DNA of 64,000 bases, taken from the NCBI GenBank assembly GCA_021811235.1, contig JAJZPG010000006.1, forward strand, positions 1-64,000. The letters run 5' to 3'. The notes under the pieces are model-generated. The model was not told the origin of the DNA. It saw nothing but the letters and a program-made list of their open reading frames with translations, and did no database searches. This DNA comes from Pseudomonadota bacterium (GTDB lineage: Bacteria > Pseudomonadota > Gammaproteobacteria > Burkholderiales > Thiobacillaceae). Positions 4,806 through 64,000 of this stretch are shown one piece after another. The position numbers were made by a program, and so were the translations under genes. Position 1 is the stretch's first letter; the number at the start of each line of letters is the position of its first letter.

Positions 4806-5717
4806 ATGCGCCGACTGACGCTCCGCCAATTCCGGGTCTTCGAGGCCGTCGCCCGCAACCTGTCGTTCTCGCGCGCGGCCGAGGAGCTGCACCTGTCGCA
4901 GCCGGCGGTCTCGATGCAGGTACGCGGGATCGAAGTGATTCTGGGCATGCCGCTCACCGAGCAGCTGGGCAAGCGGATCTATCTCACCGATGCCGGGCGC
5001 GAGGTGCTGCACGCCAGCCAGGCAATCACCGCACGGCTGGACGACCTGCAGCACAACCTCGCGCAGCTCAAGGGCGTCTCAAGCGGCAGCCTGAGGCTCG
5101 CGGTGACGTCGACGGTCAACGCCGTCGCCACCGGCATCCTGGTGCGTTTCCGCGGCAGTTACCCGGGCGTGGCCGTCCACCTCGACGTATCCAATCGCGC
5201 GACGGTGCTGGAACTGCTGGCGAGCAACCGCATCGATCTCGCAATCATGGGCCAGGTGCCGGAGAGCCTCGGGCTGGAAGCGACACGCTTCATGGACAAC
5301 CCGCTGGTGGTGATCGCGCCGCCCGACCATCCACTGGCGGGCCGGCGCAAGGTGTCGGTCGAGGCGCTCGCCGCCGAATCCTTCCTGGTGCGGGAAGCCG
5401 GCTCCGGTACGCGCGGCGCGATGGAACGCTTCTTCGCCGCACGCGGACTGGACATCCGCAGCAGCATGGAAATGAGCAGCAACGAGGCGATCCGCCAGGC
5501 CGTGCAGGCCGGGTTGGGGCTCGGCATCCTGTCGCTGCAGACGCTGGAAATGGAATTGGCCTTGAAGCGGCTTTCGGTGCTGAACGTCGAGGGCTTTCCC
5601 ATCATGCGCCACTGGTACTTAGTGCACCGCGCCGACAAGCGGCTGTCGCCGGTGGCGCAGGCGTTCAAGCAGTTCGTGCTGGCCGACGCCGGCACGAAGC
5701 CGGCGCGGCGCAGCTAG
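4806..5717 (+). CDS. cbbR: LysR-type regulator CbbR, cbbM-linked copy
   Basis: The protein has 303 residues. An N-terminal helix-turn-helix (TLRQFRVFEAVARN, then FSRAAEELHLSQPAVS, about residues 4-37) precedes a LysR substrate-binding domain. It is divergent from cbbM with a 143-base shared promoter region, the classic position of CbbR, which senses Calvin-cycle metabolites and activates RuBisCO genes. Its stop overlaps the convergent SulP stop by 4 bases. A paralogue with the same architecture sits beside csoS2 (14920-15870). The CbbR name rests on position plus family. Confidence 0.9.
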   Translation: MRRLTLRQFRVFEAVARNLSFSRAAEELHLSQPAVSMQVRGIEVILGMPLTEQLGKRIYLTDAGREVLHASQAITARLDDLQHNLAQLKGVSSGSLRLAVTSTVNAVATGILVRFRGSYPGVAVHLDVSNRATVLELLASNRIDLAIMGQVPESLGLEATRFMDNPLVVIAPPDHPLAGRRKVSVEALAAESFLVREAGSGTRGAMERFFAARGLDIRSSMEMSSNEAIRQAVQAGLGLGILSLQTLEMELALKRLSVLNVEGFPIMRHWYLVHRADKRLSPVAQAFKQFVLADAGTKPARRS

Positions 5718-7828
5718 GCCGACAGCGCGGGCCCGCCGCGGTGCCCGCCGTAGCAGGCGTCGAGCGTCTTCAGCGCGATTTCCTTGGTCTTGAAAATGTG
5801 GCCGCCGGGAATCACGCTCGACAGCCCGCCCCGTTCGAACGCGGCCAGCACCTGACGCTTGAGGCTGCTGAAATAGAGGCTCACCTTGCGTTCGCGCAGC
5901 TGCTCGACCAGCGCGCGCAGTTTCTCCTCGCCCGACACATCGAGGTCGTTGATGCCGCTGCCGATGACCAGCACCGCCTGCGCCTGCGGGAAACGCTCCA
6001 GCGCCTGCAGCACCACGTCCTCGAAGTGGGCGACATTGACGAAATTGAGCGAGCCGTCGAAGCGCAGCACCACGTAGTGCTCGCTGATCGCCGGCAGCTT
6101 GTGGGTATCGATGCCGCCGAGCACGCCGTCCGGGTGGCGGCCGAGTATCTCGGCGCGCGGCCGCATGTTGCGGAACAGGTAGAGCGCAACCGTGAGCCCG
6201 ACGCCGAGCAGGATGCCATTGGCGAGGGCAGGCGCCATCGCGAGCGTGGCGACGAAGGTGGCGATGCCGATCACCGCGTCGGGACGGTTGACCTTCCACG
6301 CATGCACCAGCGGCGCGACACGCACCAGGCCGAACACCGCGAGCATGATGACGGCCGCCAGCACCGCTTGCGGCAGGTGGTAGAGCAACGGGGTGAGGAA
6401 CAGCATCACCGCGAGTACCCCGAGCGCGCTGACGATGGCGAACAGCCCGGTGCGCGCGCCCTCGCGCGCCGCCACCGCGGAACGCGAGAACGAGCCGCTC
6501 ACCACGTAGGCATGGAAGAAGCTGCCGACGATGTTGGCCAGCCCCTGCCCCACCAGTTCGCGATTGGTGTCGATGCGCTGCCCGGTCTTGGCGCTGATCG
6601 CCTTGGAGATCGACGTGGCCTCCATGAAGCCGAGCAGGGCCATGACCAGGGCGGCCGGCAGCAGCGGCAACACCAGCGCCCAGTCGACGTGCGGTACCTG
6701 GAAGCCGGGCACGCCGGCCGGGATCGCGCCGACCACCTCGCCGCCGCCGGTGAACGTCACCTGCCCGCCGGCAACGCCGCCGAAGCGCCAGTGCCCCATG
6801 CCGAGCGGCTCGCCTTCGGGCATCTCGCCGGCGACGACGAACTGCGGCTCGCCATTCGGGCCGGTCTGGCGGGTGAAGTCGATCTGGTGCAGCTGGATGC
6901 GCAGCCGCATCATCTGTTCGCCGAGCGCCTCGGCAGCGGCCTGATTGCGCGCGATCCCGGTCTTCAGGTCGAACTGCGCGTCGAGGTTCGCGCCGCCCGC
7001 CTCGGCCTGCGCCAGCTCGGCCTGCAGGCGCGCGGTGGCCTCGCCGTTGCGCTTGAGTCCGACGGCAGTCTGGTCGAACCGCATCACCAGCGCGCGTACC
7101 GCGTCGTCCTGGATGGCCTCGATCCCTGCCTTCGCCGTGCGCTCGAAGCCGACCGCGTAGCTGACGAGCGTGGTGACGACGATCGCGATCAGCACGCCCG
7201 GCAGGCGCGGAAGGCGCTTCTGCAGCAGGAGAATGAGGCCGAACGCGCCGAGGCCGAACAGCAGCGTCGGCCAGTGGGTACTGCCGAGCTGCTGCAGCAC
7301 CACCGAGAGATCGGCGAGGAACCAGTCGCTGCGCGGCATCGGCACGTTGATCAGCTTGTTGAGCTGGGACAGGCCAATGATGAGAGCGGCGGCATTGGTG
7401 AAGCCGATGACGACCGGGTGAGACAGGAAATTCACCAGCACGCCGAGCCGGAACAGGCCGAGTGCCAGGCGCAGGATGCCGACCATCAGCGCGAGCATCA
7501 CCGACAGCGCGATGAAGGTCTCGCTGCCGGCCGCGGCATAGGGGATCAGCGCCGCCGCCGACATCAGCGACAGCATCGCGGTCGGGCCCGTGTGCAGCTG
7601 GCGCAGCGAGCCCCACAGCGAGGCGACGATCACCGGCAGGAAGCCGGCGTAGAGGCCGTACACCACCGGCAGGCCGGCGAGCTGGGCGTAGGCCATGCCC
7701 TGCGGCACCAGGATGAGGGCGACGGTGATGCCGGCGAGCAGGTCCGCACGCACGCTCTCGCGCGTCATGGGAAACCATGCCAGGAAGGGCAGCAGGCGCG
7801 TCAGTACAGGATTCGGGCGCGTCAACAT
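5714..7828 (-). CDS. SulP-family anion transporter with STAS domain, candidate bicarbonate importer
   Basis: The start at 7828 is chosen for its AAGGAGAG ribosome binding site; the protein then has 704 residues. Hydrophobic transmembrane segments with the SulP signature (VPQGMAYAQLAGLPVVYGLY, residues 41-60) are followed by a C-terminal STAS domain (about 580-690). Residues about 228-363 form an unusual hydrophilic insertion, partly coiled-coil-like, between two membrane segments. SulP proteins carry sulfate or bicarbonate. The position between cbbR/cbbM and the carboxysome operon suggests bicarbonate, as proposed for SulP genes beside other autotrophs' carbon-fixation loci. Sulfate transport cannot be excluded. 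Confidence 0.88.
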   Translation of the reverse strand: MLTRPNPVLTRLLPFLAWFPMTRESVRADLLAGITVALILVPQGMAYAQLAGLPVVYGLYAGFLPVIVASLWGSLRQLHTGPTAMLSLMSAAALIPYAAAGSETFIALSVMLALMVGILRLALGLFRLGVLVNFLSHPVVIGFTNAAALIIGLSQLNKLINVPMPRSDWFLADLSVVLQQLGSTHWPTLLFGLGAFGLILLLQKRLPRLPGVLIAIVVTTLVSYAVGFERTAKAGIEAIQDDAVRALVMRFDQTAVGLKRNGEATARLQAELAQAEAGGANLDAQFDLKTGIARNQAAAEALGEQMMRLRIQLHQIDFTRQTGPNGEPQFVVAGEMPEGEPLGMGHWRFGGVAGGQVTFTGGGEVVGAIPAGVPGFQVPHVDWALVLPLLPAALVMALLGFMEATSISKAISAKTGQRIDTNRELVGQGLANIVGSFFHAYVVSGSFSRSAVAAREGARTGLFAIVSALGVLAVMLFLTPLLYHLPQAVLAAVIMLAVFGLVRVAPLVHAWKVNRPDAVIGIATFVATLAMAPALANGILLGVGLTVALYLFRNMRPRAEILGRHPDGVLGGIDTHKLPAISEHYVVLRFDGSLNFVNVAHFEDVVLQALERFPQAQAVLVIGSGINDLDVSGEEKLRALVEQLRERKVSLYFSSLKRQVLAAFERGGLSSVIPGGHIFKTKEIALKTLDACYGGHRGGPALSA

Positions 7829-62214: not shown

Positions 62215-62324
62215 TTACGCCAAGAAAAAGGGCGCGCGCAGCCGCAGGAAACGGTACATAAAAATCAGTTGCCGCCCGCCGCGGCGACCTCTAAAGTGCC
62301 GGCATCCCGCGTCCTGGATGACCG

Positions 62325-62888
62325 ATGAATTCGCTCGACGCCCACGCCTGGCTGGCCGACCACGGCGACTACCTGTTCCGGGTGGCGCGCCGCCAGCTGC
62401 ATTCCGACGAACTGGCCGAGGATGCGGTACAGGAAACCCTGCTCGCCGCGCTGGCGGCGCAATCGCGCTACGCCGGCGACGCCAGCCTGCGCACCTGGCT
62501 CACCGCCATCCTCAAGCACAAGATCGTCGACCTGATCCGCCGCCAGGTGCGCGAAACCGGCCTGCCGCGCGACGAGGACGACGCCGAGGCGGTCGACCTC
62601 CTGTTCCAGCAGGATGGCCACTGGGCCGAACCGCTGAAACCCTGGGGCAATCCGCAAGCCGAGGCCGAACTGGGCCAGCTGCGGCGCGTGCTGGACGAAT
62701 GCGCCGACCGCCTGAAGCCGGTGATGGCGCAGGTGTTCAGCCTGCGCGAAGTCGCCGGCATGGAAACCGAAGAAATCTGTAAGGAACTCGGCATCACCCC
62801 GACCAACTGCTGGGTACTGCTGCATCGCGCCCGGCTGTTCATGCGGGAATGCCTGACGCTGAACGGGTTTGGAGGCACCTCGGCATGA
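62325..62888 (+). CDS. ECF-type sigma factor of the bufferin-like locus
   Basis: The protein has 187 residues with region 2 (HAWLADHGDYLFRVARRQL, then DAVQETLLAAL) and region 4 (VFSLREVAGMETEEICKELG) of ECF sigma-70 factors. It is ATGA-coupled to a zinc-finger anti-sigma-like gene and sits upstream of an EGKCG peptide and a DUF692 enzyme. It probably turns on that locus in response to metal (copper) or envelope stress. The stimulus is inferred. Confidence 0.88.
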   Translation: MNSLDAHAWLADHGDYLFRVARRQLHSDELAEDAVQETLLAALAAQSRYAGDASLRTWLTAILKHKIVDLIRRQVRETGLPRDEDDAEAVDLLFQQDGHWAEPLKPWGNPQAEAELGQLRRVLDECADRLKPVMAQVFSLREVAGMETEEICKELGITPTNCWVLLHRARLFMRECLTLNGFGGTSA

Positions 62889-63142
62889 AATGGCGGGTGA
62901 ACTGCAGGGAAGCCACGGAACTCTTCTCGCGCACCCAGGACGAAAGGCTGCACCTGGCCGACCGGGTCGCGATGCGCATGCATCTGGCCATCTGCCGGAA
63001 TTGCACCCGCTTCGCCCGGCAGCTGCAGGACATGCGCCGCCTGCTCCGTAGCGGCGGCGCGCTGGAGGATGAGACTGCCGGCCTGTCCGCCGATGCGCGC
63101 CAGCGCATCGAAACCGAATTGCATCAAAAGCTCAAGCCCTGA
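62885..63142 (+). CDS. Zinc-finger anti-sigma-factor-like protein
   Basis: The protein has 85 residues from the ATG at 62885 (ATGA overlap with the sigma gene). The zinc-binding-type motif is HLAICRNC, with an earlier Cys in VNCREATELFS. It has no membrane segment, so it would be a soluble anti-sigma factor. It lies directly after the sigma gene, the usual layout for an antagonist pair. Function is inferred from position and motif. Confidence 0.83.
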   Translation: MKWRVNCREATELFSRTQDERLHLADRVAMRMHLAICRNCTRFARQLQDMRRLLRSGGALEDETAGLSADARQRIETELHQKLKP

Positions 63143-63212
63143 GCTTTTTGCAAGAAACCGGGTTGCACCGGTGATTTTTGATCGTCGTCATAACTTGTTA
63201 GGAGAGAACACC

Positions 63213-63527
63213 ATGTCCAAGAAATCCCTGATCGCTGCCGCCGCCGGTTCCGCCTTCGTTGCCGGTCTCGCCGCCGCTCCCCTCGCCTCCGCTGCCGAGA
63301 ATCCCTTCGCGCTGTCGAGCCTGTCCTCCGGCTACCAGGTCGCGGACCATCACATGGAAAAGGAGAAGGCCAAGGAAGGCAAGTGCGGCGGCGCGAAGGA
63401 AGCCGAGATGAAGGCCAAGGAAGGCAAGTGCGGCAACACCGCCAAGATGAAGGACGGCAAATGCGGCGAAGGCAAGTGCGGCGCCACCAAGAAGCCGGCG
63501 GACGCCAAGCCGGGCACCCCGCAATAA
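63213..63527 (+). CDS. Bufferin-like EGKCG-repeat peptide precursor
   Basis: The protein has 104 residues; GGAGAG precedes the ATG at 63213. A signal peptide (SLIAAAAGSAFVAGLAAAPL, ending ASA) is followed by a Lys/Gly-rich mature part with four KCG motifs: EGKCG three times and DGKCG once. Such peptides, beside DUF692 enzymes, are RiPP precursors whose Cys can be turned into thiooxazole or related rings and bind copper (bufferins; EGKCG peptides such as HvfA of Haemophilus). It probably sequesters metal in the periplasm. No other Cys occurs in the mature region. Confidence 0.88.
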   Translation: MSKKSLIAAAAGSAFVAGLAAAPLASAAENPFALSSLSSGYQVADHHMEKEKAKEGKCGGAKEAEMKAKEGKCGNTAKMKDGKCGEGKCGATKKPADAKPGTPQ

Positions 63528-63539
63528 GCGGGGTGCCCG
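63511..63539 (+). promoter_or_regulatory. Perfect 12-bp hairpin linking the peptide and MNIO genes
   Basis: CGGGCACCCCGC and GCGGGGTGCCCG pair completely around the 5-base loop AATAA. The peptide's TAA stop is in the loop and the MNIO ATG begins at the base after the stem. No T tract follows, so it is not a classic terminator. It could cap peptide mRNA, reduce enzyme output, and be opened by ribosomes ending the peptide, giving coupled low-level translation. Confidence 0.75.
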
Positions 63540-64000
63540 ATGCCCCGGCGCCTCTCCGGCGCGGGGCTCGGGTTTCGGCGCGAGCTCATTCCCGCGCTGA
63601 AATCCCGGGTCCCCGACGCCATCGACTTCTTTGAACTCGCTCCGGAGAACTGGATCGACATGGGCGGCGCCTACGGCCGCGACCTGCGCGCCTTCACCGA
63701 ACGCCATGCCTTCGTCTGCCACGGCCTGTCGCTGTCGCTCGGCGGTCCGTCGCCGCTCGACGAGATGCTGCTGGCGAAGATCCGGCAGTTCATGGACGCC
63801 CACGGCATCGCGCTCTATACCGAACACCTGTCGTACTGCTCGGACGACGGACACCTGTACGACCTGCTGCCCATTCCCTTCACCGAAGCGGCCGTCAAAT
63901 ACGTCGCCGCGCGCATCCGCCGCGCGCAGGACATCCTGGAACGCCGCATCGCGATCGAAAACGCCTCGTTCTACGTCGCCGCACCGATCGCCGAGATGGA
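63540..64000 (+). CDS. DUF692 (MNIO) RiPP-modifying enzyme, 5' part
   Basis: The frame runs open from the ATG at 63540 past the window end, giving 153 residues. Family stretches are clear: [31 protein letters not shown] and AIENASFYV, which carry His, Glu and Asn ligands of the multinuclear iron site. MNIO enzymes oxidise Cys in RiPP precursors; the substrate here should be the EGKCG peptide just upstream. A DUF2063 partner is expected next, beyond the window. There is no spaced ribosome binding site; translation likely depends on the hairpin. Confidence 0.88.

What the first reader, a model, noticed from the sequence alone, without database searches (positions are those of the whole stretch)
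62325..64000. Sigma-controlled bufferin-like RiPP locus
An ECF sigma factor, an anti-sigma protein, a secreted peptide with four (E/D)GKCG motifs and an MNIO enzyme form a tight unit. It matches recently described copper-buffering RiPPs, but here the precursor has evenly placed KCG units and no other Cys. The next genes, outside the window, should include a DUF2063 partner.
Basis: partly seen in the sequence, partly recalled or inferred. Interest (0 to 1): 0.66.

Follow-up and report, generated by a model that had tools for sequence, protein, structure and literature searches.

The report
Thiobacillus copper-binding peptide (HvfABC) locus
This is a Thiobacillus version of a known bacterial gene set that makes a small secreted peptide whose cysteines are turned into copper-binding rings, probably to hold copper safely in the periplasm; the family is known, and the new part is how it sits beside a stress regulator and copper-import genes.

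Summary
In order lie an ECF sigma factor, a soluble zinc-motif (ZAS) anti-sigma, a Sec-type 104-aa peptide whose only four Cys all sit in (E/D)GKCG, and an MNIO enzyme. Past the window edge the same contig gives the predicted DUF2063 partner, then PCu(A)C and an OprC-like TonB receptor. NCBIfam places precursor, enzyme and partner in the HvfA, HvfB and HvfC families: an EGKCG-type captophorin (oxazolin/fontiphorin/gonophorin) locus, not a Buf1 or Buf2 bufferin. A sigma + ZAS + hvf arrangement is already documented in Neisseria. In 56 Thiobacillus genomes the sigma occurs only where an MNIO occurs (37/42 vs 0/14), within about 1.2 kb upstream in 34. The modules are separable: two genomes keep sigma/anti-sigma without hvfABC, others keep hvfABC with sigma lost. 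Neighbouring TonB receptors keep OprC's CxxxM copper motif even at 25-31% identity, supporting a copper role. Chemistry, metal and inducer remain untested. New member of a known kind.

The parts
62268..62295 (+). Conserved promoter-like element upstream of the sigma gene (GTTG-N17-CTCTAAA)
   Evidence: Upstream regions of Thiobacillus relatives (L006, L007, L008, L015, L016, L021, L039) share TTG-N17/18-CTCTAAAGTGC; 2 exact matches in the 2.85 Mb genome against 1 for the reversed-pattern control. It can also be read as TTG-N20-TAAAGT (sigma-70-like); which holoenzyme uses it is unknown.
62325..62888 (+). ECF sigma factor, TIGR02943 family, 187 aa
   Evidence: Pfam Sigma70_r2 4.7e-14 and Sigma70_r4_2 3.8e-12; TIGR02943 188.8 bits against cut-off 162.2
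62885..63142 (+). Soluble zinc-motif (ZAS) anti-sigma factor, 85 aa; HxxxCxxC at residues 33-40 and Cys7
   Evidence: NF052368 anti-sigma 63 bits against cut-off 50; zf-HC2 22.0 bits, just under its 22.2 cut-off; HxxxCxxC in 57 of 57 relatives and N-terminal Cys in 56 of 57
63157..63172 (+). Small hairpin (ACCGG-GTTGCA-CCGGT) followed by a T-rich stretch, between anti-sigma and precursor genes
   Evidence: Terminator-like scan hit (3 hits against 1.8 expected in the region, so weak alone); a GC-rich stem with changing sequence at the same place in most Thiobacillus relatives; not tested for function or for formal covariation
63213..63527 (+). HvfA-family RiPP precursor, 104 aa: hydrophobic N-terminal signal region, leader motif ENPFALSSLSSGYQVAD, four (E/D)GKCG core motifs
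   Evidence: NCBIfam NF050137 (HvfA family KCGExKCG) 32.9 bits against 19.5; NF050188 (HvfA equivalog) 28.4 against 95, i.e. below; 62 homologous precursors in related loci share the leader/core layout
63540..64000 (+). MNIO maturase HvfB, 282 aa; gene continues to 64388 on contig C18 (same numbering). Beyond the window: hvfC/DUF2063 64363-65121 (+), PCu(A)C copper chaperone 65118-65582 (-), OprC-like TonB receptor 65873-68194 (+), RegB/RegA-like two-component pair 68434-70229 (+)
   Evidence: PF05114 8.5e-103; NF003818 HvfB 433.5 against 360; HvfC NF050145 277 against 142; PDB 3BWW 6.4e-78; 3DEE 1e-17 for the partner

Best explanation
An HvfABC-type captophorin locus of a Thiobacillus species. 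HvfA is made with a Sec-type signal and a conserved leader. The RRE-bearing HvfC (DUF2063) presents it to the multi-iron oxidase HvfB, which converts the (E/D)GKCG cysteines to 5-thiooxazoles. The modified peptide is exported and binds Cu(I) in the periplasm, buffering copper taken in by the neighbouring OprC-like receptor and handled by PCu(A)C. The ECF sigma is held by a soluble ZAS anti-sigma and released on redox or metal stress, raising the operon. Shown here: gene identities, order, conserved motifs, co-occurrence. Inferred from characterised relatives: 5-thiooxazole chemistry, copper binding, export, stress induction.
For: Curated models above cut-off for HvfB, HvfC and the KCGExKCG domain. 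The iron-site residues proved essential in HvfB (Asn175 and the Asp242-x-His244 pair; PMC13419390) fall in motifs invariant here across 114 loci: DVNN (N175/N176) and VDTHG (D218/H220). FonBC fully modifies EGKCG and DGKCG double repeats (PMC13097082), the two motif types present. Close relatives are shown 5-thiooxazole, copper-binding products (PMC13097082; PMC13419390). ZAS motif conserved in 57/57. Sigma found only in MNIO-bearing genomes, 37/42 vs 0/14, Fisher p = 2e-9 (not corrected for phylogeny), 34 of 37 lying 366-1231 bp upstream of the MNIO. Copper neighbourhood: PCu(A)C with the full HX10MX21HXM motif; TonB receptor aligned to OprC at its CxxxM site (ACPNHM) with one HxM. All near full-length neighbouring receptors in relatives keep CxxxM and an HxM even when only 25-31% identical. 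Precedent: the Neisseria sigmaE-MseR operon NMB2140-2145 (PMC2893595, PMC3240639).
Against: No chemistry, expression or metal data exist for this organism. The full-length HvfA equivalog model is not reached (28 vs 95 bits). Two of the four motifs are isolated, whereas FonBC modified a two-repeat but not a one-repeat test peptide (PMC13097082), so all four may not be modified. No DoxX gene adjoins; the one in the genome is on another contig. Sigma control is not obligatory: sigma/anti-sigma are decayed in G030 and missing in G009 while hvfABC stays, and present in G024 and G041 with no hvfABC beside them. No ECF-type promoter common to the sigma gene and hvfA was found.
Confidence: 0.85

Rival explanations
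1. A copper-supply system: the modified peptide passes imported copper to cuproenzymes (via PCu(A)C) instead of protecting against excess.
For: Neighbours are copper import and delivery genes, an OprC-like CxxxM/HxM receptor and PCu(A)C; their adjacency holds through receptor replacement in Thiobacillus.
Against: Characterised 5-thiooxazole pathways are frequently induced by excess copper, gold or oxidants, unlike methanobactin, which is induced by copper starvation (PMC13097082). The import genes stay when hvfABC is absent (L116, L117), so they do not depend on it.
Confidence: 0.2
2. Chiefly an oxidative-stress operon: the sigma/ZAS pair senses oxidants, and the peptide protects against peroxide, hypochlorite or sulfur-compound stress, copper binding being secondary.
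For: The anti-sigma has the Cys/HxxxCxxC layout of redox ZAS proteins. H. influenzae RpoE2/HrsE responds to HOCl and H2O2 and controls the doxX operon (PMC7907618); neisserial sigmaE controls msrAB (PMC2893595).
Against: Oxidants did not change meningococcal sigmaE expression (PMC2893595). The single msrA found lies on another contig. The neighbouring genes are copper genes.
Confidence: 0.2
3. The sigma/anti-sigma pair is an unrelated neighbour, and hvfABC is driven by its own promoter behind the hairpin.
For: Sigma and hvfABC are lost independently; a conserved hairpin with a T-rich tail separates them; no shared promoter motif was found.
Against: Strict co-occurrence (37/42 vs 0/14) and same-strand spacing in 34 genomes; the same sigma-anti-sigma-A-B-C order in many other betaproteobacterial loci; experimental precedent in Neisseria.
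Confidence: 0.15

Closest known systems
HvfABC / oxazolin of non-typeable Haemophilus influenzae
   Same: EGKCG precursor with Sec signal, HvfB-type MNIO, HvfC-type DUF2063/RRE partner; invariant iron-site motifs
   Different: HvfA there has three AEGKCGEGKCG tandem units (six Cys); here four Cys, two of them in isolated motifs; HvfX (DoxX) is in that operon and absent here; rpoE2 lies beside msrAB in Haemophilus, not beside hvf (PMC7907618)
Neisseria sigmaE operon NMB2140-2145 / gonophorin (ngoABC)
   Same: ECF sigma plus soluble ZAS anti-sigma (MseR) in one operon with the MNIO-pathway genes; autoregulated there (PMC2893595, PMC13097082)
   Different: DoxX gene (NMB2140) at one end and sigma (NMB2144) and anti-sigma (NMB2145) at the other; here sigma and anti-sigma precede hvfA, and PCu(A)C and an OprC-like receptor follow
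Fontiphorin (FonABC, Fontimonas thermophila) and Microbulbifer MmrABC
   Same: EGKCG core repeats, MNIO plus partner, copper binding reported for the product
   Different: More repeats (seven sites in FonA; five to eight Cys in MmrA); no link to a ZAS anti-sigma was seen in the passages read
Bufferins Buf1 (DUF2282) and Buf2
   Same: Sec-exported MNIO-modified copper-buffering RiPPs with a DUF2063 partner; Buf1 loci also carry sigma/anti-sigma genes (PMC12452194)
   Different: Different precursor (four conserved Cys in Buf1, six or twelve in Buf2, no EGKCG repeats); NrsF-type anti-sigma; BufB model not reached here (254 vs 310 bits)

Membership tests
HvfA/oxazolin (Buf_EGKCG) captophorin locus | Precursor with N-terminal Sec-type signal and repeated EGKCG-type motifs | tested here: met
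   Four (E/D)GKCG motifs, NF050137 above cut-off; hydrophobic N-terminus by hydropathy only, no signal-peptide predictor was run
HvfA/oxazolin (Buf_EGKCG) captophorin locus | Full-length HvfA equivalog model (NF050188) | tested here: not met
   28.4 bits against 95; so the claim made is 'HvfA-family precursor', not 'HvfA equivalog'
HvfA/oxazolin (Buf_EGKCG) captophorin locus | HvfB-type MNIO with iron-site residues | tested here: met
   NF003818 433.5 against 360; DVNN, HMAG, DTHG and ERD motifs invariant in 114 loci; 3BWW 6.4e-78
HvfA/oxazolin (Buf_EGKCG) captophorin locus | DUF2063/RRE partner (HvfC, PME type 1) next to the MNIO | tested here: met
   PF09836 90.6 bits, NGO1945_C 88.1 bits, NF050145 277 against 142
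HvfA/oxazolin (Buf_EGKCG) captophorin locus | 5-thiooxazole on Cys and copper binding | not testable with these tools
   Needs expression, mass spectrometry and metal assays
Bufferin Buf1/Buf2 | DUF2282 or 6/12-Cys precursor | tested here: not met
   No Pfam match for the precursor; only four Cys, all in EGKCG-type motifs
Bufferin Buf1/Buf2 | BufB-type MNIO | tested here: not met
   NF050167 253.9 against 310
ZAS anti-sigma (RsrA/MseR type) | HxxxCxxC plus an N-terminal Cys, no membrane helix, encoded next to an ECF sigma | tested here: met
   Cys7, His33, Cys37, Cys40; 85 aa; overlaps the sigma gene; absence of a membrane helix judged by reading; zinc and redox response untested
OprC-type copper TonB receptor (neighbour gene) | CxxxM in the plug and HxM in the barrel | tested here: inconclusive
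   CxxxM (C118, M122) aligned with the OprC site; HxM at 317-319 present but its alignment to OprC H323/M325 not shown; TIGR01778 copper-receptor model below cut-off (122 vs 472)

The most novel reading that the evidence does not exclude
In Thiobacillus, hvfABC is a mobile or dispensable cassette placed between a sigma/ZAS regulator and a copper import/delivery pair, so that one redox- or metal-sensing switch sets both copper uptake and a thiooxazole copper buffer; the captophorin would then work in copper supply as much as in detoxification.
Probability: 0.15. Interest if true: 0.5.

Novelty: new member of a known kind. Interest (0 to 1): 0.28.

Why it matters
The chemistry of this peptide family was settled only in 2024-2026 and its physiological job is still argued. 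Thiobacillus offers natural experiments: genomes with sigma but no hvfABC beside it, and genomes with hvfABC but no sigma. A neighbouring copper receptor that is replaced by distant relatives yet keeps the metal motif CxxxM is a genomic argument, independent of biochemistry, that these loci are about copper.

Tried and rejected
A sigma promoter shared between the sigma gene and hvfA: the conserved element before sigma (GTTG-N17-CTCTAAA) is not seen before hvfA, its spacing differs from the neisserial sigmaE consensus, and it can equally be read as sigma-70-like; regulon mapping was therefore dropped. A link to MsrAB: the one msrA found is on another contig. A DoxX partner: only on another contig. 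A sigma dedicated only to hvfABC: rejected as absolute, because of L116 and L117. No Thiobacillus paper on this locus was found in the library. The intergenic hairpin was examined only by alignment and a simple scan. Structure prediction was not run, since sequence matches to 3BWW and 3DEE already settle the folds.

Full report
What is there. The end of the window holds a sigma factor (62325-62888), an overlapping anti-sigma gene (62885-63142), a 104-aa secreted-type peptide (63213-63527) and the start of an MNIO gene (63540 onwards) on one strand. A PCu(A)C copper chaperone gene follows on the other strand (65118-65582), then a TonB-dependent receptor (65873-68194) and a RegB/RegA-like pair. 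The closest relatives in public genomes are Thiobacillus assemblies, 85-89% identical in the MNIO.

Is it more than chance. The peptide has Cys only at 58, 73, 84 and 89, each in (E/D)GKCG; shuffles of its composition give such a motif about once per thousand and never twice. NCBIfam puts the peptide in the HvfA family by the KCGExKCG domain (32.9 bits, cut-off 19.5), the enzyme in HvfB (433.5, cut-off 360) and the partner in HvfC (277, cut-off 142). It does not reach the full HvfA equivalog model or the BufB model.

What family. The MNIO landscape survey calls these Buf_EGKCG/oxazolin precursors (PMC12452194). Gadgil and colleagues showed that fontiphorin, oxazolin and gonophorin all carry 5-thiooxazoles, revised the earlier oxazolone/thioamide structure, and proposed the name captophorins (PMC13097082). 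HvfB needs HvfC and a mixed-valent diiron centre (PMC13419390). The residues whose change abolished activity in HvfB, Asn175 and the Asp242-x-His244 pair, lie in motifs (DVNN, VDTHG) that are invariant in 114 related loci here. Fifteen of the 62 precursors collected in related loci also carry EF-hand-like segments, the survey's second type.

The regulator. The anti-sigma is 85 aa with Cys7 and HxxxCxxC, the layout of zinc (ZAS) anti-sigmas; HxxxCxxC is kept in 57 of 57 relatives and the N-terminal Cys in 56. The same arrangement, sigma plus soluble ZAS anti-sigma in one operon with the MNIO-pathway genes, is documented in Neisseria meningitidis, where removal of MseR raises the operon and msrAB (PMC2893595, PMC3240639). 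In H. influenzae, RpoE2 with the small anti-sigma HrsE controls the doxX operon (PMC7907618). That one of the NMB2141-2143 products is the EGKCG precursor follows from the published gonophorin work and the gene order; I did not fetch that sequence.

Census in the genus. Of 56 Thiobacillus genomes, 42 have an MNIO and 37 have the sigma orthologue at 79% identity or more. All 37 are among the 42 and none among the 14 without MNIO (Fisher p = 2e-9, not corrected for shared ancestry). In 34 the sigma lies 366-1231 bp upstream of the MNIO. Of the other three, G022 is split between contigs, and G024 and G041 are informative: argB, sigma and anti-sigma are in place, PCu(A)C and the TonB receptor are in place, and hvfABC is missing between them; neither genome has an HvfC match anywhere, and the MNIO of G024 is a distant type elsewhere (26% identical). 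The opposite case exists too: G030 keeps hvfABC with sigma reduced to fragments, and G009 keeps hvfABC with no sigma or anti-sigma match. The unit is therefore two separable modules. These absences are read from draft assemblies; a mis-assembly at one site is possible, but the same junction in two genomes makes it less likely.

Copper context. PCu(A)C carries its full HX10MX21HXM motif. The receptor's plug aligns with Pseudomonas OprC across the copper site, ACPNHM against ACPNRM, and it has one HxM; OprC binds copper by CxxxM-HxM (PMC8610252). In the Thiobacillus loci the receptor beside the locus is sometimes a different one, only 25-31% identical, or on the other strand, yet every near full-length one keeps CxxxM and has an HxM. 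Alignment of each HxM to the OprC position was not checked. This supports copper as the metal without proving it.

Promoters and RNA. A conserved element precedes the sigma gene in Thiobacillus but does not recur before hvfA, and it may be a sigma-70 promoter; autoregulation is not shown. A GC-rich hairpin with changing sequence lies between anti-sigma and hvfA in most relatives; it might set the ratio of peptide to regulator, which is a guess.

Verdict. New member of a known kind. The parts worth following are the separability of sigma and hvfABC and the steady copper-import neighbourhood. Modification, metal and inducer all remain inferred from relatives.

Noticed in passing
65873-68194 on contig C18 (outside the window); L006, L008, L039: The TonB receptor beside the locus is exchanged for distant relatives (25-31% identity) in some Thiobacillus, yet the replacement keeps the OprC-type CxxxM motif.
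   Followed up: partly
L116 (G024), L117 (G041): sigma/anti-sigma and the PCu(A)C-TonB receptor genes are kept but hvfABC is missing between them; a 315-aa exported-looking protein gene lies between PCu(A)C and the receptor.
   Followed up: partly
L118 (G030), L119 (G009): hvfABC intact while the sigma/anti-sigma pair is decayed (G030) or missing (G009).
   Followed up: partly
L016:5656-6001: A locus with sigma, anti-sigma, MNIO and partner but no room for a precursor gene between anti-sigma and MNIO; the precursor may lie elsewhere or be lost.
   Followed up: no
L004:4219-4525 and 5598-5970: Two EGKCG precursor genes upstream of one MNIO, the first near a more distant sigma (43% identical); the anti-sigma reading frame next to the second contains a stop.
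   Followed up: no
window 63157-63172: Small GC-rich hairpin with a T-rich tail between anti-sigma and hvfA, stem sequence changing between relatives.
   Followed up: partly
G023 in the genus census: Four MNIO matches in one Thiobacillus genome, two of them scoring clearly higher than the window's type, suggesting several MNIO pathways in one strain.
   Followed up: no
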